Position numbers and translations under genes: made by a program. The notes under the pieces are model-generated. The model worked only from the letters and a program-made list of their open reading frames with translations, was not told the origin of the DNA and ran no database searches. From the NCBI GenBank assembly GCA_001724855.1, contig MEED01000014.1, positions 124,001 to 188,000 of the forward strand: 64,000 bases of DNA. The letters are read 5' to 3'. Shown here piece by piece: positions 39,403 through 55,596 of the stretch. Numbering within the stretch: position 1 is the stretch's first letter; each line of letters opens with the position of its first letter. The stretch comes from Lautropia sp. SCN 69-89 (GTDB taxonomy: Bacteria; Pseudomonadota; Gammaproteobacteria; Burkholderiales; Burkholderiaceae_E).

Positions 39403-40227
39403 TCAGCTCAACTCGTTGTAATAGTGGTGGCGCTGCGTGACGCAATAGCCGCGCCGCAGTTCCACCGACTCGTTGCCGTAGGTGTGCGAGACGCGCTCGA
39501 CCAGCAATAGCGCAGAGCCCTCGGCCACCTGCAGCGTGCGCGCGCGGCCGCGATCGGCAGCGACTGCCTTGAGCCGCTCGGCCGCGCCGATCATGCGCAC
39601 GCCGAACTCGGTCTCGAACATCAGGTAGAGCGGCCCATGCCACGCGTCGAGGCGCTCGGCCGACAGCCCGCGAAAGCGCGAGCCCGGCAGCCAGATCTCG
39701 TCGAGCACCGTCGGCTCGCCGTCGGCCTCGAGCAAGCGGCGGATCAGCACCACCGCCTCGCCGGCGCGCAGCCCCAGCGCGCGCGCCACCTCGCTGGGCG
39801 CACGCAGCCGGCGGCATTCGAGCACGCGGCTGGTCATGACCATGCCCGGCCCCGCTTCGCCGGCGCCGGACACGGCGCGCGCCTCGGCGCTCGCGTCGAC
39901 CTCGTCGGGGCGCAGGCGCAGGAAGCGGAACTGCGTGCGCACCTCGCGGTGAGAAGCGACGAACGTGCCTCTTCCCTGCCGGCGCACGACCAGGTTGGCG
40001 GCGGCCAGCTCGTCGATCGCCTTGCGCACGGTGCCCTGGCTCACGCGGTAGCGCGCCGCCAGCTCCACCTCGCTCGGGATCGCCTCGCCGGGCTTCCACT
40101 CGCCCGACTGCAGACCGCGCAGCAGCAGCTCCCGGATCTGTCGGTACAGCGGCGCGAAGGTCGGCCCGGCGCCGGCCGCGGAGGCCGTGCCGTCGTCGTG
40201 CCGCGCTGTCCGGGGCGCCTCGTTCAT
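39403..40227 (-). CDS. GntR-family transcriptional regulator, HutC/UTRA type
   Basis: The 274-residue regulator has an N-terminal winged helix (APLYRQIRELLLRGLQSGEWKPGEAIPSE, VSQGTVRKAIDELAAANLVVRRQGRGTFV) and a C-terminal UTRA effector domain ending in RRGYCVTQRHHYYNELS. Its place between sdhCDAB and mdh, and the palindrome in the divergent region, suggest it controls TCA genes and itself. The ATG chosen gives ~30 disordered residues before the helix-turn-helix; a GTG further upstream would overlap the mdh -35 box and is unlikely. Confidence 0.9.
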   Translation of the reverse strand: MNEAPRTARHDDGTASAAGAGPTFAPLYRQIRELLLRGLQSGEWKPGEAIPSEVELAARYRVSQGTVRKAIDELAAANLVVRRQGRGTFVASHREVRTQFRFLRLRPDEVDASAEARAVSGAGEAGPGMVMTSRVLECRRLRAPSEVARALGLRAGEAVVLIRRLLEADGEPTVLDEIWLPGSRFRGLSAERLDAWHGPLYLMFETEFGVRMIGAAERLKAVAADRGRARTLQVAEGSALLLVERVSHTYGNESVELRRGYCVTQRHHYYNELS

Positions 40228-40271
40228 GGCGGCGATTGAATCATGCCCAGCCACCGGATGTCCAGTTTCAT

Positions 40272-40289
40272 ATGTCTTATATAAGATAT
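40272..40289. promoter_or_regulatory. Palindromic operator between gntR and mdh
   Basis: The perfect 12-bp palindrome TCTTATATAAGA sits in the longer ATnTCTTATATAAGAnAT. It stands out as AT-rich in GC-rich DNA, 10 bp upstream of the mdh -35 box. On the minus strand it falls between a GTGACT and a TATGAA that could serve as the gntR promoter (18-nt spacing). The site is therefore placed for GntR autoregulation and control of mdh. Confidence 0.7.
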
Positions 40290-40298
40290 CAGTCACGC

Positions 40299-40327
40299 TT
40301 GACACTGGCAGCGGCCAATCCTAGACT
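40299..40327 (+). promoter_or_regulatory. Sigma-70 promoter of the mdh-prpBC operon
   Basis: TTGACA (perfect -35), a 17-nt spacer, then TAGACT (4 of 6 for -10). The expected transcript starts about 40 nt before the mdh ATG, which is preceded by AAAGGT. Confidence 0.75.
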
Positions 40328-40372
40328 ACCGGCCGTCCCCGGTTTCACCCCTCCCCCACGAAAGGTCACCCC

Positions 40373-41356
40373 ATGTCCAAGCCCGCCAAGCGCGTCGCCG
40401 TCACCGGCGCCGCCGGCCAGATCGGCTACAGCCTGCTTTTCCGGATCGCCAACGGCGACATGCTCGGAAAAGACCAGCCCGTGATCCTGCAGTTGCTCGA
40501 CATCACCCCGGCGCTGCCCGCGGTCAAGGGCGTGGTGATGGAACTCGAAGACTGCGCCTTCCCGCTGCTCGCGGGCGTGGTGGTCACCGACGACCCGAAG
40601 GTGGCCTTCCGCGACGCCGACTACGCGATGCTGGTAGGCGCGCGCCCGCGCACCAAGGGCATGGAGCGCAAGGACCTGCTCGAAGCCAACGGCGCGATCT
40701 TCACCGTGCAGGGTCGCGCGCTCGACGAGGCGGCCAGCCGCGATTGCCGCATCCTGGTGGTGGGCAACCCGGCCAACACCAACGCCTACATCGCGATGCG
40801 CTCGGCCCCCGGCCTGCCGAAGAAGAACTTCACCGCGATGCTGCGCCTGGACCACAACCGGGCACTCTCGCAGGTGGCCGCGCGCATCGGCAAGCCGGTC
40901 GACGCGGTCGAGAAGATGACCGTCTGGGGCAACCACAGCCCGACCATGTACCCCGACTACCGATTCGCCACCGTCGGCGGCCAGCCGGTCAAGGCGATGA
41001 TCGGCGACGAGTCCTGGAACCGCGACGTCTTCATTCCCACCGTCGGCAAGCGCGGCGCGGCGATCATCGAGGCCCGCGGGCTGTCCTCGGCAGCCTCGGC
41101 CGCCAACGCGGCGATCGACCACATGCGTGACTGGGCGCTGGGCACCGGCGGCCGCTGGGTCACGATGGGCGTGCCTTCCGACGGCTCCTACGGCATCCCC
41201 GAAGACGTGATCTACGGCGTCCCGGTCACCTGCGCCAACGGCGAATACACGCGCGTGAGCGGCCTGGAGATCGACGAGTTCAGCCGCGCGCGCATGGACC
41301 TCACGCTGAAGGAGTTGTTCGAGGAACGCGAAGGCGTCAAGCACCTGCTGGGCTGA
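40373..41356 (+). CDS. mdh: Malate dehydrogenase
   Basis: The 327-residue enzyme belongs to the cytosolic-type malate dehydrogenase branch common in betaproteobacteria. NAD motif [13 protein letters not shown], substrate Arg in [14 protein letters not shown], and the catalytic pair in LRLDHNRA and [11 protein letters not shown]. It oxidises malate to oxaloacetate. It is first of a + strand series mdh-prpB-prpC-prpD-acnA with short gaps (12 to 40 bp). Confidence 0.97.
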
Positions 41357-41368
41357 GGTTCGCCCACC

Positions 41369-42247
41369 ATGAGCACCCCAGGACGCAAGTTCCGCAACGC
41401 GCTCGCCGCCGAACAGCCGCTGCAGGTTCCCGGCGCGATCAACGCCAATCACGCGCTTCTGGCCAGGCACGCCGGCTATCGCGCGATCTACCTGTCGGGC
41501 GGCGGCGTCGCCGCCGGCTCGCTCGGCCTGCCCGACCTCGGCATCACCGGACTCGAAGACGTGCTGGTCGACGTGCGCCGCATCACCGACGTCTGCGACC
41601 TGCCGCTGCTGGTCGATGTCGACACCGGCTTCGGCGCCTCGGCGTTCAACGTCGCGCGCACCACGAAGTCGCTGGTCAAGGCCGGCGCAGCCGCGATGCA
41701 CATCGAGGACCAGGTGGGCGCGAAGCGCTGCGGCCACCGGCCCGGCAAGGAGATCGTCAGCCAGGACGAAATGGTCGACCGCATCAAGGCGGCCGTCGAC
41801 GCCCGTACCGACCCCGACTTCTTCGTGATGGCGCGCACCGACGCGCTGGCGGTCGAGGGGCTCGAGCGCGCGATCGAGCGCGCGGTGGCATGCGTCGAGG
41901 CCGGCGCCGACGGCATTTTCCCCGAGGCGATGACCGAGCTGTCGATGTACCGGCGCTTCGCCGACGCGGTGAAGGCCCCGGTACTGGCCAACATCACCGA
42001 GTTCGGCCAGACGCCGCTGTTCACCGTCGACGAGCTGCGCGGCGCCGGTGTCGCGATCGCGCTCTACCCGCTGTCGGCATTCCGCGCGATGAACAAGGCG
42101 GCCGACAACGTCTACCGCACGCTGCGCCGCGACGGCACGCAGCAGGCGGTGGTGCCGACGATGCAGACACGCCAGGAACTGTACGACTCGATCGGTTACT
42201 GGGACTACGAGCGCAAGCTCGACGCACTGTTCGCGCGCCCGAAGTGA
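41369..42247 (+). CDS. prpB: 2-methylisocitrate lyase
   Basis: PrpB splits 2-methylisocitrate to pyruvate and succinate in propionate breakdown. The 292-residue product shows [14 protein letters not shown], the catalytic loop [11 protein letters not shown] (with Cys) and the Mg-binding region of the isocitrate lyase superfamily. It follows mdh by 12 bp, so succinate and malate oxidation are encoded with it. Confidence 0.96.
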
Positions 42248-42269
42248 GCGCGCCCCAAACGGAACGACC

Positions 42270-43427
42270 ATGAGCAACGAGACGCAGAGCGCCGGCTTCA
42301 AGCCGAAAAAGTCGGTCGCGCTTTCGGGAGTCACCGCCGGCAACACCGCGCTGTGCACCGTCGGCCGCACCGGAAACGACCTGCACTACCGCGGCTACGA
42401 CATCCTCGACATCGCCGAGGCCGCCGAGTTCGAGGAGATCGCGCACCTGCTGGTGCACGGCAAGCTGCCCAATCGCGCAGAACTGGCCGGCTACAAGGCG
42501 AAGCTGCGCGCGCTGCGCGGGCTGCCGGCGAACGTGAAGGCGGCGCTCGAATGGCTGCCGGCCTCGGCGCACCCGATGGACGTGATGCGCACCGGCGTCT
42601 CCGCGCTCGGCTGCAACCTGCCCGAGAAGGACGACCACAACCTCGCCGGGGCGCGCGACATCGCCGACCGGCTGATGGCCTGCCTGGGCCCGATGCTGCT
42701 CTACTGGTACCACTACTCCACCAACGGGCGGCGCATCGAGGTCGAGACCGACGACGACTCGATCGGCGGCCACTTCCTGCACCTGCTGCACGGACGCGAG
42801 CCCTCGGCGCTGTGGGTGCGCGCGATGCACACGTCGCTGATCCTGTACGCCGAGCACGAGTTCAACGCGTCCACCTTCGCCGCCCGCGTGATCGCCGGCA
42901 CCGGCTCGGACATGTACTCGTCGATCGCCGGTGCGATCGGCGCCCTGCGCGGCCCGAAGCACGGCGGCGCCAACGAGGTCGCCTTCGAGATCCAGAAGCG
43001 CTACGACACGCCCGACCAGGCCGAGGCCGACATCCGGCGCCGGGTCGCCGAGAAGGAGGTCGTGATCGGCTTCGGGCATCCGGTCTACACGGTCTCCGAT
43101 CCGCGCAACAAGGTGATCAAGGAAGTCGCGCGCAAGCTCTCGAAGGACGCCGGCAACACGAAGATGTTCGACATCGCCGAGCGCCTCGAGACGGTCATGT
43201 GGGACGCGAAGAAGATGTTCCCGAACCTCGACTGGTTCAGCGCGGTCAGCTACCACATGATGGGCGTGCCCACCGCGATGTTCACGCCGCTGTTCGTGAT
43301 CGCGCGCACCTCGGGCTGGTCGGCGCACGTGATCGAGCAGCGCATCGACAACAAGATCATCCGGCCGAGCGCGAACTACGTCGGTCCCGAGAACCTGAAG
43401 TTCGTGCCGCTCGACAAGCGCAAGTAG
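42270..43427 (+). CDS. prpC: 2-methylcitrate synthase
   Basis: PrpC condenses propionyl-CoA with oxaloacetate. The 385-residue citrate-synthase-family protein has [34 protein letters not shown] and [18 protein letters not shown]. The short type without the GltA N-terminal domain separates it from gltA. It is intact, directly before the broken prpD. Confidence 0.96.
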
Positions 43428-43467
43428 CCGCATCCCCGGAACCTTCACTTTCACGGAAGCACGCAAC

Positions 43468-44822
43468 ATGGGCGCCGCCATTCCCACCAGCCGGCCGAAG
43501 CCGGACAAGGTCCTGGTCGACATCGTCGACTACACGCTGAAATACAAGGTGCGCAGCAAGGAGGCGATCGAGACCGCGCGCGCCTGCCTGGTCGACACGC
43601 TCGGCTGCGGCCTGGAGGCCCTGTCGTACCCGGCGTGCACCAAGCTGCTCGGGCCGGTCGTGCCCGGAACCGTCGTGCCCAATGGCGCGAAGGTGCCCGG
43701 AACGCAGTTCCAGCTCGACCCGGTGCAGGCCGCGTTCAACATCGGCGCGATGATCCGCTGGCTCGACTTCAACGACACTTGGCTGGCCGCGGAATGGGGT
43801 CATCCGTCGGACAACCTCGGCGGCATCCTCGCCACCGCCGACTGGCTCAGCCGCACCGCGATCGCGCAGGGCAAGGCGCCGCTCACGATGCGCCAGGTGC
43901 TCGAGGCGATGGTCAAGGCGCACGAGATCCAGGGCTCTCCCGCGACGAGTTGATCAACGCGGTCTCGCTCGCCTGGGTCGACGGCCAGTCGCTGCGCACC
44001 TACCGGCACGCGCCGAACACCGGCAGCCGCAAGAGCTGGGCGGCCGGCGATGCCACGAGCCGCGCAGTGCGCCTGGCGCTGATCGCGCGCACCGGCGAGA
44101 TGGGCTATCCGTCGGTGCTCACCGCGAAGACCTGGGGCTTCTACGACGTGCTGTTCAAGGGCAGGGAGTTCAGCTTCCAGCGCCCCTACGGCAGCTACGT
44201 GATGGAAAACGTGCTGTTCAAGATCTCGTTCCCGGCCGAGTTTCACGCGCAGACCGCGGTCGAGTGCGCGATGACGCTGCACGGCGAGCTGAAGAAGGCC
44301 GGCCGCTCGGTCGACGACATCAGGAAGATCACGATCCGCACGCACGAATCGGCGATCCGCATCATCGACAAGAAGGGCCCGCTCGACAACCCGGCCGACC
44401 GCGACCACTGCATCCAGTACATGGTGGCCGTGCCGCTGATCTTCGGTCGGCTCACCGCCGGGGACTACGAAGACGGGATCGCCGCCGATCCGCGCATCGA
44501 CGCGCTGCGCGCGAAGATGACCTGCGTCGAGGACAAGCAGTTCAGCAAGGACTACCTCGATCCGGACAAGCGCTCGATCGCCAACGGCATCACGATCGAG
44601 TTCGCCGACGGCAAGAAGCTGAAGGAAGTCGTCGTCGAATACCCGATCGGTCACCGTCGCCGCCGCAAGGAAGGCATCCCGGTGCTGGTCGAGAAATTCC
44701 GCACCAACCTCGCGCGGCGCTTCCCGGCGAAGCAGCAGCAGCGCATTCTCGAGGTCTCGCTCGACCAGAAGGCGCTCGAGGCGATGCCGGTCAACGAATA
44801 CGTCGACCTGTACGTCATCTGA
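43468..44822 (+). pseudogene. prpD: 2-methylcitrate dehydratase, broken by a frame-shifting internal deletion
   Basis: PrpD dehydrates 2-methylcitrate. The first frame runs normally to [10 protein letters not shown] (about residue 155), then reads SPATS and stops at 43953. In another frame the protein resumes as [28 protein letters not shown] and continues to a normal C-terminus ([11 protein letters not shown]). In E. coli PrpD about 32 residues stand between these two parts, so roughly 94 bp (3n+1) appear to be missing, not just a base. Both flanks are otherwise well conserved. The product would be non-functional unless the sequence is wrong at this point. Confidence 0.88.
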
Positions 44823-44835
44823 GGAGAGATCAAAC

Positions 44836-47464
<2,629 letters not shown>

Positions 47465-47471
47465 CCGGAAG

Positions 47472-47506
47472 CGCGGACGGACCGGCCATCGGCCGGCCCG
47501 TCCGCG
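47472..47506. terminator. Long GC hairpin after acnA
   Basis: CGCGGACGGACCGGCC pairs with GGCCGGCCCGTCCGCG across ATC: 16-bp stem with one mismatch. It lies 8 bp after the acnA stop and before the MASE1-EAL gene. No T-run follows. Confidence 0.5.
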
Positions 47507-47554
47507 GCGCGGCAGAGTCGATTACACTTCGGCAGGCATCGACTCGCCGACTCC

Positions 47555-49798
47555 GTGCTCCAGTCCGACCTCACCTCGCGCACCGACGCCAGCGGCGGCG
47601 GGCTGCCGGCGTTCCCGCGGCTGCTGCTGTCGACGGGCATCGCGTTCGTCGCCTGCCTGATCGCGAAGCTGATCTCGTTCGACGCCGCCGACCTTCTGCT
47701 CATCTGGCCCTGCGCCGGCGTCGCCTTCACGTTCGCCTGGCGCAACGGCCTGCGTTGGGCCGTGCCCCCGGCCGTCGGCGGCGCACTGTGGGCCTGGGTC
47801 GAGTTCGGCGCGATCGGGCCGACGCTCGTCACCTTCGCGGCCAGCGTGGCCGGGCCGATGCTCGCCGTGGCCACGCTGCGCCGGCTCAACAACTGGAAAC
47901 CGGCCGAGTACCGCCTCGAAGCCGCAGTGCGCTTCGTGGGCGTGGTCACGCTCCTCGCCGCGCCGGTCGACGCGCTGCTGGCCACGCTCGGTCTTCAGTG
48001 GAGCGGGCTGTTCGGCGCGGCTCATCCTGCACACCGCTTCATGGTCTGGTGGCTGATCGACGCGCTGGGCCTCCTGCTAATCGCCCCTGCCCTGCTCGCC
48101 TGGATGGGCGAGTCGCTCGCCGAAGCGGAGCCCGGCCTGTCGCAGCGCGCGCTGGTCGACGCCCCGGCCTTCTTCCTCACGCTGATGGTGATCGGCACCG
48201 GCGTGATGGTGTCGATGTTCGGCCAGCAAGGCTACGCCTACGCGCTGGCGTTCCTCTACTTTCCGATCGTGGCCTGGACCGCGATCCGGATGAGCGAGCG
48301 CGCCACTGCGCTGTCGCTGGCGGCCACCGCGATTCCGCTGCTGATCGCGCGCGCCCACCAGGTGGCCCAGTCGCACGACGACTTCTTCCGCGCACTCGAG
48401 GCCTCGGTGCTGGTGTTCTCGGCGGTGATCGTCGCGCAGATGCTGCAGGCCGTCGCGACCGATCGCCGCTTCGCGCTCGCGCGCGTCGCGCAGCAGGCGC
48501 GCCAGGACATGTCGACCGGGCTGCTCAACGACCGCGGCCTGATCGCCGAGATCGGCGAGCGCCTGTCGATGCCCACCCGCCCCGACTACGGGCTGATCGG
48601 CGTGCACCTGTCGAACTTCGACACGCTGAACGACCTGTGCGGCCCGATCCGGGCGCTGCAGCTCGAGCAGGACGCCGCGGCCCTGCTGATGCGCCAGCAA
48701 GGCGCGAAGGCTGCCGCCCGACTTTCGGCGGGGCGCTTCGCGTTGCTGGTCGAGGCCGAGTCGGTCGCCGACGTGCGCGCGGTCGCGCGCGAGCTGTACT
48801 CGCAGCTCAACGGCCAGTTGTTCAAGACCGAGCACGGCAGCGTGCGCCTGCAGCTGTGCGTGGGCGGCCTGCTGGTGGACCGGCACGCGCTGATCAACAG
48901 CGAAGACTGCCTGATGTCGCTGTCCGACGCGATGGCGATCGCCGCCAGCGTGCGCGACCCGCAGCTCTTCGTCGAGCCGCTGTCGCAGACGATGATCGAC
49001 GCGCGGCGCGCCCACCAGGGCAAGATCGAGCACATCCGCGAGGCGATCCGCGACAAGCGCTTCGAGCTGCATGCGCAGCCGATGATCGATCCCGAGGCGC
49101 CCGAGGGAATGCTCTCCTACGAAGTGCTGATCCGCCTGCTCGATCGCGACGGTGGGCTGATCCGTCCGCCCGAGTTCCTGTCACTCGCGGTGCAGGCGCA
49201 GATGACGCCGATGATGGACCGCGGCGTCATCCGCCAGATCTTCTCCTGGCTCGCCGACCATCCGGACGCGCTGGCGCGCACCTGGAAATGCTCGATCAAC
49301 CTGTCGGGCCTCACGATGAGCGACGGCACGATCGCCGGCTTCATCCGCGAGCAGCGCGCGCTCTACGCGATTCCCGCCGACAAGATCGTGTTCGAGATCA
49401 CCGAGAGCGAGGCGATCCGCAACCCCGCCGCCGCCTCGCGCCTGGTCGACGACCTGAAGGCCGAGGGTTTCGGCATCGCGCTCGACGACTTCGGCACCGG
49501 GCTGGCCACGTTCGAGTACCTGAAGCGCTTCCCGCTCGATTACCTGAAGATCGACGGCTCGTTCATCCGCAACCTGGTGTCGAACCCGATCGACGAGGAA
49601 ATCGTGCTGTCCACGGTGCGGGTGGCGCGGCGCCTGAACATCCGCACGGTGGCCGAGCACGTGCACAACCAGGACACGCTCGATCGGCTCACCGACATCG
49701 GCGTCGACCACATCCAGGGCGACTGGATCGGCCGCGCCGCGCCTCTCGAACAACTGTTTACAGCGCCCGCGCGGCGCGTCACGCGCTCGCCGGCCTAG
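47555..49798 (+). CDS. MASE1-GGDEF-EAL cyclic-di-GMP protein with degenerate GGDEF
   Basis: A 747-residue membrane protein: eight or so hydrophobic segments forming a MASE1 sensor (to about residue 290, with RIGWPCAGVAF-like WPCAGVAFTFAWRNGL), a GGDEF domain and an EAL domain. The GGDEF signature is replaced by RLSAGRFALL, so cyclase activity is unlikely. The EAL domain keeps the catalytic residues (EVLIRL, NLSG, EITESEA, DDFGTG, LDYLKIDGSFI), so it is probably a phosphodiesterase. The start is GTG. It follows the broken acnA by 90 bp. Confidence 0.88.
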   Translation: MLQSDLTSRTDASGGGLPAFPRLLLSTGIAFVACLIAKLISFDAADLLLIWPCAGVAFTFAWRNGLRWAVPPAVGGALWAWVEFGAIGPTLVTFAASVAGPMLAVATLRRLNNWKPAEYRLEAAVRFVGVVTLLAAPVDALLATLGLQWSGLFGAAHPAHRFMVWWLIDALGLLLIAPALLAWMGESLAEAEPGLSQRALVDAPAFFLTLMVIGTGVMVSMFGQQGYAYALAFLYFPIVAWTAIRMSERATALSLAATAIPLLIARAHQVAQSHDDFFRALEASVLVFSAVIVAQMLQAVATDRRFALARVAQQARQDMSTGLLNDRGLIAEIGERLSMPTRPDYGLIGVHLSNFDTLNDLCGPIRALQLEQDAAALLMRQQGAKAAARLSAGRFALLVEAESVADVRAVARELYSQLNGQLFKTEHGSVRLQLCVGGLLVDRHALINSEDCLMSLSDAMAIAASVRDPQLFVEPLSQTMIDARRAHQGKIEHIREAIRDKRFELHAQPMIDPEAPEGMLSYEVLIRLLDRDGGLIRPPEFLSLAVQAQMTPMMDRGVIRQIFSWLADHPDALARTWKCSINLSGLTMSDGTIAGFIREQRALYAIPADKIVFEITESEAIRNPAAASRLVDDLKAEGFGIALDDFGTGLATFEYLKRFPLDYLKIDGSFIRNLVSNPIDEEIVLSTVRVARRLNIRTVAEHVHNQDTLDRLTDIGVDHIQGDWIGRAAPLEQLFTAPARRVTRSPA

Positions 49799-49829
49799 GG
49801 TCTCGTGCCCGGCCCGCAAGCGGGCGCAG

Positions 49830-50441
49830 TCAGCCGGCCAGCCAGCGCCGCAGGTTCGGCTCCTCGTCCACGTCCCAGAGCGTGCGCAGCTGCGACCACC
49901 GCGCGCCGCTCTCCTGCAGGCGCCGCCGTGTGGCGGCCATCAGCGTGTCGCACCCCCAGGGCATGTCCTCAAACAGGTGCGCGACGCGGCGGCTGAGCCC
50001 CACGAGCGCGTAACCGCCGTCCTCGGTGGGCCCGAACACCGCATCGCGCTCGCGCAAGGCCTCGAAGGCATCGTGCAGGTCGCTGGCCGACAGCGAGACG
50101 ACGTCACTGCCGACGAGCACCGGCACCCTCCCCTCGTCGAGCGCGCGCGCCAGCGCAGTGTCGATCCGCTCGCCCAGCGAAGCGCCGACCTGCGTGGTGA
50201 GCGTGAAGCCGTGCATCGCGGCCAGCCGCGCACACTCGCCCTCGCGGTCGTCGCCGAGAATGCACAACTCGACTTCGAGCCCCGGCGACTGCACCTGCGC
50301 CGCACGAACCACCGCCAGCGTGTCGCGCAGCATCGTCCGGTAGTGCGCGAGCGCAGCCGCCTCGCCGACGGTGCGCGCCAGCCGCGTCTTGACCTCGCCG
50401 GCGCACGGCACGCGCGCGAACACGATGACCCGCGGGTTCAT
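49830..50441 (-). CDS. TIGR04282-family glycosyltransferase-like protein
   Basis: The 203-residue nucleotide-transferase fold has VIVFARVPCAGEVKTRLA, VGSDVVSLSASDLHDAF and FGPTEDGGYALVGL, the signatures of the TIGR04282 (DUF2064) family. Some members are annotated as arsenosugar biosynthesis glycosyltransferases, but the reaction is not known here. No arsenic genes are near. It is on the opposite strand to the preceding MASE1-EAL gene and 8 bp after the VOC gene. Confidence 0.8.
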   Translation of the reverse strand: MNPRVIVFARVPCAGEVKTRLARTVGEAAALAHYRTMLRDTLAVVRAAQVQSPGLEVELCILGDDREGECARLAAMHGFTLTTQVGASLGERIDTALARALDEGRVPVLVGSDVVSLSASDLHDAFEALRERDAVFGPTEDGGYALVGLSRRVAHLFEDMPWGCDTLMAATRRRLQESGARWSQLRTLWDVDEEPNLRRWLAG

Positions 50442-50449
50442 GGCGAAGC

Positions 50450-50869
50450 CTATTTCGCGAACAACGACGCGAGGTCGTGGAACGCCTTGAATTCGAGCGC
50501 GTTGCCCGACGGGTCCAGGAAGAACATCGTGGCCTGTTCGCCAGGCTCGCCCCTGAAGCGCACGTGCGGCTCGATCACGAAGCGCACCCCGGCAGCGGCC
50601 AGGCGGTCGGCCAGGCGCTGCCATTCGTCCATCGGCAGCACGACTCCGAAGTGCCGCACCGGTACCTGGTCGCCGTCGACCGCGTTGGTCTGCGCGGCGC
50701 GCGCTTCGCCCGGCGCCAGGTGCGCGACGACCTGGTGACCGTAAAGGTCGAAGTCCACCCACTCGGCCGAACTGCGTCCCTCCGGGCAGCCGAGCAGCCC
50801 ACCGTAGAAGGCGCGCGCGGCCGCGAGGTCGTGGACCGGGAATGCGAGGTGGAACGGGTGGACGGCCAT
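50450..50869 (-). CDS. VOC-family protein (glyoxalase/dioxygenase fold)
   Basis: The 139-residue protein has the paired beta-alpha-beta-beta-beta modules of the vicinal oxygen chelate family: [35 protein letters not shown] and [15 protein letters not shown]. His and Glu metal ligands appear present (HLAF, RHFG, LEF). The substrate cannot be deduced. It shares a strand and 8-bp gap with the TIGR04282 gene, so the two are likely co-expressed. Confidence 0.85.
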
Positions 50870-50996
50870 GCGATCGGAAAGACGGTGCGGCAGATGCAGC
50901 CGCCGCAGGACCGCTGCGGCCGGCATTATGACGCAGCGCTCGAGGCTTCGACACTGCCTCGACCGCGTCTGCACGAACCGTCGGCGGCTTCCCGCC

Positions 50997-52226
50997 TTAC
51001 TGCGGCTCCTGGCCGCGCCAGACCTGCAGTGCCTGCATCGGCGCCATCGGCGGCATGAACAGGAAACCCTGCGCCTCGCGGCACCCCCAACTCTGCAGGA
51101 ACCGGTATTGCTCGGCGGTTTCCACGCCGACTGCAATGACGTTCAGGTCCATCGCCTGCGCGAGCGCCACCGAGGCGCGCACGATCCGGCCGGCCTCGGC
51201 GCTGGCCGGCGCCGCCAGCACCAGCGAACGGTCGATCTTCAAGGCGCGTACCGGGCCTTGGCCGAGCCGCTGCAGGTTGGAGGCCGCGGTGCCGAAGTGG
51301 TCGATCTGCACCGCGAATCCCATGGCGCCGAGTTCGCGCAGCGTATGCGAAGCGCCGTCGCCATGAAGCGTCAGTGCAGCCTCCGACAGTTCCAGCTCGA
51401 GGTGCGAAGTCAGCGTCGGGTCGGCGGCGGCCAGTTCGTCGAGCAGCCTCGGGAATCCGGGATCGCAGAACTGGCTGGCAGAGATGTTGACCGCGATCGG
51501 CACGGTCACGCCCGACTGACGCCACACCAGGCTTTGCCGCGCCGCCGCGCGCAGGATCCACTCGCCGAGTCGGGGTCCGAAGGCGGACTGCTCCGCCAAC
51601 TCGACCAGCGTCGCCGCTTCCTCTGCCCCGGCCGGGCGAGTCCGGCGCAACAGCGCTTCGTAGCCGGTGACCTCGCCATTGGCCAGTCGCACCCTCGCCT
51701 GGTAGTGCAAGGTGAACTCGTTGCGCTCGAGCGCGCGTCGGTAAGCGTCGAAGGTCGCACCGATCGGGGTGACGTGAATCGCAGCGCCCGAGCGAGGTTC
51801 GCACCCGGCTGCCGGTTCCGGCGTGTGATGTGGGCCCGCGTCGGTCGAGGCGTTCGGCGGCCGGGCGGCCGGTGCGCACGGCGTGCCGGCTGGCGCCGCC
51901 TCGTCGACCGGCGTCACTTCGTCGGGCCCCTCCGCCCGGCTCGCGCGGCCAGCCTTGCGGCGGCGCCACGCCCGTGGAGCGAACAGCGCGCCGCCTGCCA
52001 GCAGCGCCACGCTGCCGAGAAGCGGCACCAGAAGACCGGTGCCGTCGGCACCCGCCGACTCGCCTCCATCGGGCGCGGCGACCGGGGAAGCCTCGTCGGT
52101 GCCCGGCCGCGCAGTCGCCCCGGCCTGCGCATGGGCGTCGACGGGCTTCGCGCCGCGCATCGTGCCGAGCAGGAGGAGTGAAACCGCGACCAGCAACGCA
52201 AGCGAAACGAGCCCGAAGCGGGACAT
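50997..52226 (-). CDS. EAL-domain protein with altered catalytic residues
   Basis: From the chosen ATG the 409-residue product has a membrane helix at the N-terminus ([18 protein letters not shown]), a second one at about 60-80, a disordered Pro/Ala stretch and an EAL domain. The EAL core has GYEALLRR and NISASQF. The metal motif DDFGTG reads IDHFGTA, and the AEGVET region reads AVGVET. Losing the second Asp and a Glu suggests it no longer hydrolyses c-di-GMP but may still bind it. The ATG lacks a clear binding site; longer starts are possible. Its C-terminal pattern ([14 protein letters not shown]) is close to the neighbour gene, so they look like tandem paralogues. Confidence 0.82.
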
Positions 52227-52518
52227 GAGCGGGAGAAGGCAGGTGAGGAAGGCCCCCACTGTGCCCCAAGCGCCAGCGACGTGCGAGGCTGGAAGCGCCT
52301 TCGTCCGGGCGGCTCCGGGGGCCATGCGACGGGCGGCCGGGGGTTGCCGATCGGCGGAGGGCGAGCCCTGCCGAGATCGGTCCACCTGGCGCCGGCCTGT
52401 GTCGGATTCGCCACGCGAACTCGTCGTGGCCGGAATCAGGACGGCCGCACCCGGTCGGGCCTGGGGATCGCACCCAGGTCTGCATGGCTGCGGCGGCGGC
52501 CCGCTCGCCGCGGCCAGG

Positions 52519-55103
52519 CTATGGATGGAGCGCCAGACGATGCTGTGTCGGCAAGCCGTCTGTGATGGCCCGACGCCGCGCCCAGAACGTCAGTGCCTCC
52601 TGCGGCACCATGGCTGCGCCGAAGAAGAAGCCCTGTGCCTGTTCGCATCCGCAAGATTGAAGGAATCGCACCTGCGCCTGCGTCTCCAGCGAGATAGCGC
52701 CATGACGGCCTTGACAATCTCGCAGGCCTCCGTGTCGTCTGGAGTGCTCGCAATGAAGCTTCGGTCAATCTTGAGAGCGCTTACAGGAAGACGGGAGATG
52801 CGCGCGAGGCTCGAGTAGCCGGTGCCGAAATCGTCGACATGCATCGCATAGCCCAGCGCCGCGATATCGTTCAGCGCCTGCCTGGCACGCTCGATGTCGG
52901 TAGCAATCGTTGTTTCCGTCAACTCCAGGACCAGGAGTTCGGGGAGTTCCGGGTCCCGCACCATCAGCTCACGAAGCGCCTCGACGAGTCGTGCATCATG
53001 AAGCTGCATTGCCGAGACATTCACCGCTATCGGGCATCTCATGCCCTTGCGTCGCCACGCGAGGCTCTGCCGAGCTGCTTCACGCACCACCCATTCGCCG
53101 AGCGTAACGACGAACCCCGATTGCTCGGCTGCCGCAATGAGTTCGCCGGCCCCCTGCATGCCTTCCGGCGTATTCCAGCGCAAGAGCGCCTCGAAACCTA
53201 CGACAACGTTGTCTGCCAGCGCAACCTTGGGCTGATAATGAAGCACGAACTCCCCTCGCTCGAACGCCGAGCGCAGGTTCTGCAACGAAATCGCGCGGTT
53301 TGTTGCACGCTGCCCCGTCTCGGAATCGAAGTAGCGCCAGAGATTTCGCCCCCCGGACTTGGCAGCCTGCAGGGCGATTCCCGCGGCCGCAAGCAACTCC
53401 TCGCCGGTTCCGCCATCCTCGGGATACCGTGCAATCCCCACCGAAGCAGTCAGGTACACCGGCGAGCCGTCCAGGTCGATGGGTTGAGCGCACGCTCGCA
53501 TCATGATGGCGGCGAGTGTCTCAAGCTCGCCCGGCTCGTCATGCCGCACGAGCGCACCGAACTCGTCACCGCCCAGGCGAGCCAGCTCGCACCGCCCCTC
53601 CGTCACCGTCTTCAGTCTCGCTGCAACGGCATCGATGACCTCGTCGCCCACTGCATAACCGCGTACGTCGTTGATGGTCTTCAGGTTATCGATGTCCAGG
53701 AAGAGCAGGGACAGCGGGCGCCTGTCATCGGGCAGCGTGGAAAGCACCTCCTGGATGCGGGTCATCAGCCCGCTGCGATTGGGTAGTCCGGTCCGCGCAT
53801 CGTGGTAAGCGAGGTAGCGGAAGCGCTCCCGGGCTGCGCGCAGCTCGTCCAGGATGCGGGTTTGTTCGTTCACGTCGCGCGAAATGACGACGAATTCGCC
53901 GCGCTTTCCGGCGTTGAACAGCTTTCCGATGCACTCGAAGTGCCGGTACTCGCCGCTGCTGCATCGCAGACGCAGCGTCCTGCGGAGCTCACGCCCCCGG
54001 TTCATCGCCCTGGCTGCATCGACCATTGCAGGCACGTCGTCCGGGTGCACGAAGTCGGTAAAGTACCTGCCCTTCAACGACGCCGGGTCGTACCCCGTGA
54101 GACCCAGCGTCGACGGCGAGGCAAAGATGATGGCTCCATCCGCGCCATGCAAGGTCACCATGTCGGAAATGCTCGCAGAGAGCGCGCGATGCAGGCGCTC
54201 CGATTGAACCAGCCGTGCTCTCTGGCCTCGAGCCTTTGCCCAGAATCTTGCCGCGAAAAGGGAACTCGTCAGAAGCAGAAGCGCAGACGCCCAGAAGGCC
54301 ACGAGCGCCGCGCCGCGCTGATACCAGCGCCCTTCGGCCGGCTCCAGCCATGAATCGCGGATTGCCGCGCGCTCGTCCGCGTGGAGCGCCTGCATGGCGT
54401 GAGTCAGGTCCGAGAACAGCGTCGGACGGTCCGACCGTACCGCGAGCGCAGGTTCGAAGTAGAACGGCAAACGCGCCGGTCGCCAGAACCGGGACAAGCC
54501 GAGCTTCTCGATGTAGTAGACCGCCCGGTTCTCCTCCATCGCGACGAAATCGACCCGTCCGTTCGCAAGCGCTTCCAGGGCGTCGGCGTCACTGTCGAAG
54601 CCTACGTAACGCACGTTCGCGTCGAGCTCCATGAATCCGTCGATGGTGCCGGCTTGAAGGACGCCGACTCGCTTGCCCGGAAGGTCTGATGTCGCGACAA
54701 GATGCGACGGCCCCATTGGGCCACTCACCAGTGTTATCGGAAGGCGCTCCAGGGGCCGCGTGAACTGGGCGTGCACGCGCGGATTCGCCGTTTGCATCAA
54801 CGGTCCCGCAACATCGACCTCAGCCCTGTCTACCGCCTGCTTGAGTGCCGCCAGGTTGTCGAAGAACCGGACGTCGAAGCGCAGCCGCGAACGTCGTTCG
54901 AGCGCTGCGAGGTACTCGCCGAGATATCCACGCAGGGCTCCTCCGCTCTCGCGCATGGCGAGCGGCGGGGCCTCGACGGTGCCGAAGGTGACTCGCACCA
55001 GCGGCGCCGCCTGTAATGGCTCCGGTTCGGTGTGCCGCCCATGGACCGCAGTCGCAGCGGTGATGAGCAACGCGACGAAAGCCGTAGCGCGGGATAACCG
55101 CAT
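52519..55103 (-). pseudogene. Periplasmic-sensor PAS-GGDEF-EAL protein, frame broken near the 3' end
   Basis: The gene codes for a signal peptide, an SBP3-type periplasmic binding domain (about 35-240), one membrane helix, a PAS domain, and GGDEF with an intact RLGGDEF. An EAL domain follows (FEALLRW, DDFGTGYSSL, ALKIDRSFI). The frame is lost after EIVKAVMAL. A second frame then gives SLETQAQVRFLQSCGCEQAQGFFF, the normal EAL end, stopping at TAG. About 31 bp (3n+1) seem missing, including the conserved VIAEG part. As read, the first frame ends at 52590 with an unrelated tail and the EAL domain would be inactive; the cyclase could still work. Confidence 0.85.
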
Positions 55104-55312
55104 CGGAAGGACTCAGTTGCGCATGGGAACGAGCCCGATTATTCGCCGCTTGTGCCGTGAATGCCTACGTTTTGGGCAAGATAAGTTGCCTGAATCCATA
55201 AATCCGAGGCAAGAGCCGACGAGCGCGCGGATTCGGGGAATATCTGGCTTGCCGCAAAAAGCCGTCGCATGGTTGTCGCACAACCCGGACGAAAACAGGC
55301 CACCCCAGACGC
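55104..55312. other. Intergenic stretch without a recognisable gene
   Basis: No ORF here has family-like features. The region runs from the start of the GGDEF-EAL gene to the terminator of tRNA-Pro. It is slightly less GC-rich than the rest and presumably carries the promoter of the GGDEF-EAL gene. I see no strong -35/-10 pair. Confidence 0.5.
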
Positions 55313-55344
55313 AAAGGGCTCGCGACCTCGAAAGGTGCGAGCCC
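55313..55344 (-). terminator. Terminator-like hairpin after tRNA-Pro
   Basis: On the minus strand GGGCTCGCACCT-TTCG-AGGTCGCGAGCCC forms a 12-bp stem with a one-base bulge and a TTCG tetraloop, followed by TTT. It lies about 74 bp after the tRNA 3' end. Confidence 0.65.
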
Positions 55345-55417
55345 TGCCAACTGTTTGATCTTTATAAGTCTGCTGTCGTCTGAGGTGGTCTGCGTCGACA
55401 GCGGTCAGAAGAAGAAT

Positions 55418-55496
<79 letters not shown>

Positions 55497-55596
55497 GCGT
55501 CGAAGTATACCAGCAGGCATTCCGCCGCTCGGCCCGCACGTGTCACACTGCAAGGTGCCGGCGCGCACCGTCCACGCGCGACCCAGGAACCGTTTC

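What the first reader, a model, noticed from the sequence alone, without database searches (positions are those of the whole stretch)
43900..52740. Four same-direction frame-breaking deletions cluster in 8.8 kb
All four breaks lie in this stretch, none elsewhere in the 64 kb. Each is a net loss of 3n+1 bases with no visible extra mutations or stop codons in the flanks. Old pseudogenes would show wider decay; a local assembly or amplification fault, or very recent deletion events, fit better. If real, citrate and methylcitrate dehydration and one c-di-GMP enzyme were lost together.
Basis: inference. Interest (0 to 1): 0.7.

Follow-up and report, generated by a model that had tools for sequence, protein, structure and literature searches.

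The report
Assembly gaps mimicking four gene deletions
Four gene-breaking gaps sit close together in this draft bacterial genome, but similar gaps also break genes the cell cannot do without, so they are most likely errors of sequence assembly and not lost genes.

Summary
Against congeneric genomes the window lacks 97 bp in prpD (after 43935), 22 bp (45827) and 49 bp (47075) in acnA, and 31 bp in a GGDEF-EAL gene (about 52,700, minus strand). All four are 3n+1; no further decay was seen. Best explanation: false joins in a draft assembly, with bases missing at the junctions. (1) acnA is the only aconitase gene found: no acnB over cut-off; the other aconitase-family hit is leuC. (2) Mid-gene breaks also hit the only frr, ispG, ftsK, serA-like, iorA-like, a response regulator and rfbA, on this and four other contigs; frr and ispG are essential by general knowledge. 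(3) Five of nine measured junctions show no microhomology. (4) The missing prpD and longer acnA stretches were not found elsewhere in the assembly. (5) Changes in the block still look constrained. The shared 3n+1 is probably chance: five other measured losses are 3n+2. The clustering is real. Three breaks lie in a prpB-acnA block 97-99% identical to one congener whose flanks are mostly 85-95% identical; the response-regulator break lies in 3.5 kb near-identical to another congener. That hints at cross-species assembly tangles. No reads could be inspected.

The parts
43468..44822 (+). prpD (2-methylcitrate dehydratase) in two pieces; 97 bp absent after 43935, junction overlap 0-4 bases depending on the relative
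   Evidence: TIGR02330 matches 1-144 and 178-468 in two frames; alignment to five relatives
44836..47464 (+). acnA (aconitate hydratase A) in three pieces; 22 bp absent after 45827 and 49 bp absent after 47075, no junction overlap
   Evidence: TIGR01341 matches 2-316, 326-732 and 752-876 in three frames; alignments
52590..55103 (-). GGDEF-EAL gene (837-aa open frame) with 31 bp absent near 52,700; the EAL C-terminus continues in another frame
   Evidence: Pfam EAL to position 199 of 236; frame translation; alignment to G006 L153
41369..47464 (+). prpB-prpC-prpD-acnA block, 96.6-99.4% identical to G014 per 500 bp although flanking windows are mostly 85-95%

Best explanation
The four breaks are errors of a draft assembly: contig ends were joined with 22 to 97 bases missing between them and no N placed. 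They are one dense patch of a fault seen elsewhere in the same assembly. Shown: the missing bases, the intact relatives, no second aconitase gene found, similar breaks in frr, ispG and ftsK, and several overlap-free junctions. Inferred: that such genes cannot be lost, so the sequence is wrong. More speculative: that the patch arose where a near-identical prpB-acnA block shared with a related species tangled the assembly graph.
For: acnA is the only aconitase found: no acnB match over cut-off here or in the 15 congeners searched; PF00330 gives the broken acnA and one other hit, which is leuC. The only frr is split over two frames, with an 8-bp loss against G005 and a matching split on the family model. 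ispG lacks about 23 model positions with a frame change. ftsK has a 23-bp loss and an 11-bp gain against G014 and G005. Other losses: response regulator 26, serA-like 29, iorA-like 32 bp. Junction overlap is 0 at both acnA breaks, ftsK, response regulator and serA-like (five of nine); frr 1, iorA-like 0-3, prpD 0-4, EAL not reliable. The missing prpD and 49-bp acnA stretches have no match better than E 0.004 in the genome (40 of 86 and 40 of 48 first-look candidates scored). Changes assigned to this genome in the block: 6 nonsynonymous, 16 synonymous. Strict frame-HMM hits: 11 in 1,380,297 bases here, 1 in 652,144 bases of six congeners. Low coverage is reported to create spurious pseudogenes (PMC11017572; abstract and passages seen).
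Against: No reads or coverage could be inspected. The rate excess over congeners is weak (binomial P 0.064) and G005, with 28 hits in 323,160 bases, was left out of the controls. Of the 11 hits I judge 2 (C1:6516, C9) to be gene boundaries, and the 1 control hit likewise. prpD shows a 4-base overlap with two relatives and iorA-like 3 bases with three, which real deletions could also give; overlaps were judged on relatives' letters. Only G006 was used to size the EAL loss, and only G005 to size the frr loss. For acnA alone the changes assigned to this genome are 4 nonsynonymous to 6 synonymous, a weak sign of constraint. The size of the rfbA break was not measured.
Confidence: 0.9

Rival explanations
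1. Very recent real deletions: prpD, acnA and the EAL gene were lost in this lineage so recently that nothing else has decayed.
For: No internal stops in the prpD and acnA pieces; substitutions still look constrained, as expected if the loss is very recent; prpD junction has a 4-base overlap with G005 and G009.
Against: acnA is the only aconitase found and carries two separate losses; frr and ispG carry similar breaks; five of nine junctions have no overlap.
Confidence: 0.06
2. Amplification chimeras: the template was whole-genome amplified and deletion chimeras became the consensus.
For: Scattered deletions with abrupt junctions could arise this way.
Against: Amplification chimeras are usually reported with short microhomology (recalled), while five of nine junctions here show none. 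The sample type is unknown; 95.6% completeness does not point to a single-cell genome.
Confidence: 0.03
3. Chimeric contig from two co-occurring species: the prpB-acnA block comes wholly or partly from a G014-like genome and the breaks mark faulty path choices (a specific form of the best explanation, so its odds overlap with it).
For: Block 41.4-47.5 kb is 97-99% identical to G014 against mostly 85-95% around it; the broken response regulator lies in 3,477 aligned positions 99.2% identical to G009, the 26-bp gap counted.
Against: A recent homologous exchange gives the same identity pattern; no such block was shown for frr, ftsK, serA-like, iorA-like, ispG, rfbA or EAL; the three breaks lie inside the block, not at its edges.
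Confidence: 0.3

Closest known systems
Spurious pseudogenes in draft bacterial assemblies (PMC11017572)
   Same: Genes appear broken by frameshifts that come from assembly, with coverage, platform and assembler as causes
   Different: Here the measured losses are 8-97 bp and four cluster within 8.8 kb. Abstract and passages seen only
Gene-fragmenting errors in long-read assemblies (Kastor, PMC12007338)
   Same: Broken genes recognised by comparison with reference genes
   Different: That tool concerns long-read errors; the sequencing type here is unknown. Seen only in a search listing with the start of its abstract

Membership tests
Spurious pseudogene (assembly artefact) | Intact orthologues in close relatives | tested here: met
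Spurious pseudogene (assembly artefact) | Breaks also fall in genes the cell cannot lose | tested here: met
   only frr and only aconitase broken; ispG broken; that frr and ispG are essential is recalled, not tested
Spurious pseudogene (assembly artefact) | Raw reads contradict the junction | not testable with these tools
   no reads available
True (old) pseudogene | Further stops or relaxed selection in the pieces | tested here: not met
   no internal stops in five prpD and acnA pieces; 6 nonsynonymous to 16 synonymous changes assigned to this genome over the block, 4 to 6 in acnA alone
Real deletion at short direct repeats | Microhomology at the junctions | tested here: inconclusive
   0 bases at both acnA breaks, ftsK, the response regulator and serA-like; 1 at frr, 0-3 at iorA-like, 0-4 at prpD; EAL not reliable
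AcnA (TIGR01341) | Full-length match over the curated cut-off in one frame | tested here: not met
   three partial matches in three frames, none over the cut-off alone
PrpD (TIGR02330) | Full-length match in one frame | tested here: not met
   two partial matches; the second alone exceeds the cut-off

The most novel reading that the evidence does not exclude
The breaks are real: this bacterium, or a subpopulation of it, has undergone a recent burst of small deletions with little junction homology, including its only aconitase and its only frr, after taking up a prpB-acnA block from a related species.
Probability: 0.03. Interest if true: 0.7.

Novelty: not a real feature. Interest (0 to 1): 0.1.

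Why it matters
An automatic reading would report loss of the TCA cycle's only aconitase and of propionate breakdown in this organism. The evidence says the genes are most likely intact in the cell. Frame checks on essential genes are a quick way to tell such artefacts from true pseudogenes. If the link to near-identical shared blocks held up, it would point to where assemblies of mixed congeneric species break.

Tried and rejected
Common 3n+1 length as a signal: rejected, since five other measured losses are 3n+2; losses of 3n would not show in a frame scan. Old decay: rejected. The missing stretch placed elsewhere in the assembly: not found for prpD or for the 49-bp acnA stretch (only part of the first-look candidates were scored); the 22-bp and 31-bp stretches were not sought. 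Back-up aconitase: the only other aconitase-family hit is leuC. Back-up PrpD: the second MmgE/PrpD protein on contig C9 scores only 41 bits against a 950-bit cut-off on one PrpD model and does not match TIGR02330 at E 1e-6 (one domain-length stretch only); my first try on it, used the wrong strand and means nothing (seen). G005 as a frame yardstick: dropped, because it has 28 strict hits in 323,160 bases and only 82 of 104 of its covered genes matched C14 in one piece. The dN/dS table is not used: for several G014 rows the script seems to have picked a wrong reading frame, since its counts disagree with the site-by-site count. One search failed with a script error and was redone. Looser HMM hits were read only in part. 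An Rfam scan of the window gave only one tRNA. A plasmid search listed places 67-80% identical; 2 records in the 90-95% band were not among the rows shown and were not looked at. Fold energies of the missing stretches had no control and are not used. Three paper searches were made; I read none of their hits beyond PMC11017572.

Full report
Setting. The window is bases 124001-188000 of contig C14 (209,793 bases) of a draft genome of 3.81 Mb in 70 contigs, 95.6% complete. It is unnamed. Of the 80 named loci fetched by prpC, the 12 best on window 40001-50000 are 76-84% identical in DNA and mostly Burkholderiales by their titles, so I call it Burkholderiales-like by inference.

Observation. Relatives of the same genus carry 97 bp more in prpD at 43935, 22 bp more in acnA at 45827 and 49 bp more at 47075. 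The prpD size was measured on G014, G005, G009, G006 and G015. The 22-bp loss was seen against six of the seven relatives aligned, G012 aligning as 15 bp two bases away, and the 49-bp loss against seven of seven. In the GGDEF-EAL gene at 52590-55103(-) the EAL domain stops at model position 199 of 236, its end continues in another frame, and the G006 relative has 31 bp more. All four are 3n+1. The prpD and acnA pieces carry no internal stops and match successive parts of the PrpD and AcnA models.

Why an error is likelier than gene loss. First, function. A search for acnB gave no match over its cut-off in this genome or in the 15 congeners searched. The aconitase family gives in this genome the broken acnA and one other hit, which is leuC. 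Loss of acnA would leave no aconitase found in a genome that is 95.6% complete. A second MmgE/PrpD family protein on contig C9 does not match the PrpD model TIGR02330 at E 1e-6.

Second, breadth. A frame-following HMM trained on C14, run over 1,380,297 bases of 21 contigs, gave 11 strict frame switches against 1 in 652,144 bases of six congeners (binomial P 0.064, so the rate difference alone is weak). G005, with 28 hits in 323,160 bases, was left out of the controls because its own sequence shows many one-base gaps against C14 (120 of 254 gaps are one base). Reading the pieces, I judge 2 of the 11 (C1:6516, C9) and the one control hit to be gene boundaries. The other nine are frr, acnA twice, ftsK, a response regulator, a serA-like gene, ispG, an iorA-like gene and rfbA. 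The strict rule missed prpD, EAL and the ftsK insertion, which alignments show. The names ftsK, serA-like, iorA-like and response regulator are my reading of the translations; frr, ispG and rfbA are from NCBIfam. frr is the only copy found and is split over two frames. Essentiality of frr and ispG is general knowledge, not tested here. The rfbA break was not sized.

Third, junctions. Against relatives, both acnA breaks, the ftsK loss, the response regulator and serA-like show no junction overlap, frr 1 base, iorA-like 0-3 and prpD 0-4; the EAL alignment is too diverged to judge. Real deletions commonly use short repeats; abutted contig ends need none. This leans towards error without proving it. 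The lengths 8, 23, 26, 29 and 32 are 3n+2, so the shared 3n+1 of the four is probably chance.

Fourth, the missing prpD stretch and the 49-bp acnA stretch, taken from G014, have no match better than E 0.004 in the genome. C14 holds no N, so no gap was marked.

Fifth, selection. In the prpB-acnA block 103 sites differ from G014; 22 are assigned to this genome by four other congeners, of which 6 change the amino acid and 16 do not. For acnA alone it is 4 to 6, so the sign of constraint comes more from prpD and prpB.

Why here. At uniform density about 0.08 breaks would fall in 8.8 kb. Three of the four lie in a block (41.4-47.5 kb) that is 96.6-99.4% identical to G014 per 500 bp, while flanking windows are mostly 85-95% (one isolated 99.4% window at 30 kb). 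The broken response regulator lies in 3,477 aligned positions that match G009 at 99.2% with the 26-bp gap counted. Either recent exchange between congeners or cross-species chimerism gives this. Both would make near-identical stretches in a mixed sample hard to assemble. This link is suggestive only: it was not shown for the other breaks. The EAL break lies in a stretch (50.5-55.4 kb) with little collinear match in the relatives fetched, next to a tRNA gene.

Verdict. Spurious pseudogenes from assembly are described (PMC11017572; abstract and passages seen). This is a case of a known kind of error, with unusual clustering.

Noticed in passing
window 41369-47464: prpB-prpC-prpD-acnA block is 97-99% identical to congener G014, above its flanks: recent homologous exchange or assembly chimera.
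   Followed up: partly
C14:67000-67544 (L129): The only frr (ribosome recycling factor) found in the assembly is split over two frames, with an 8-bp loss against G005.
   Followed up: yes
C14:207663-209792 (L116, L118): ftsK at the contig end has a 23-bp loss and an 11-bp gain against G014 and G005.
   Followed up: yes
G000 C15:105919-107058 (L234): ispG lacks about 23 model positions with a frame change; not compared with relatives' DNA.
   Followed up: partly
G000 C1:118050-121500 (L199, L200): About 3.5 kb around a broken response regulator matches congener G009 at 99.2%, while the other congeners' best matches to the regulator are near 72%: recently shared DNA.
   Followed up: partly
window 50500-55500: Stretch next to a tRNA gene (55421-55494, minus) with two EAL-type genes and little collinear match in the congeners fetched; a third EAL gene, shared with them, lies just before it (47555-49798).
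   Followed up: no
G005 C2: The four-contig relative G005 shows many one-base gaps and frame switches in its own sequence, which makes it a poor yardstick for pseudogenes.
   Followed up: partly
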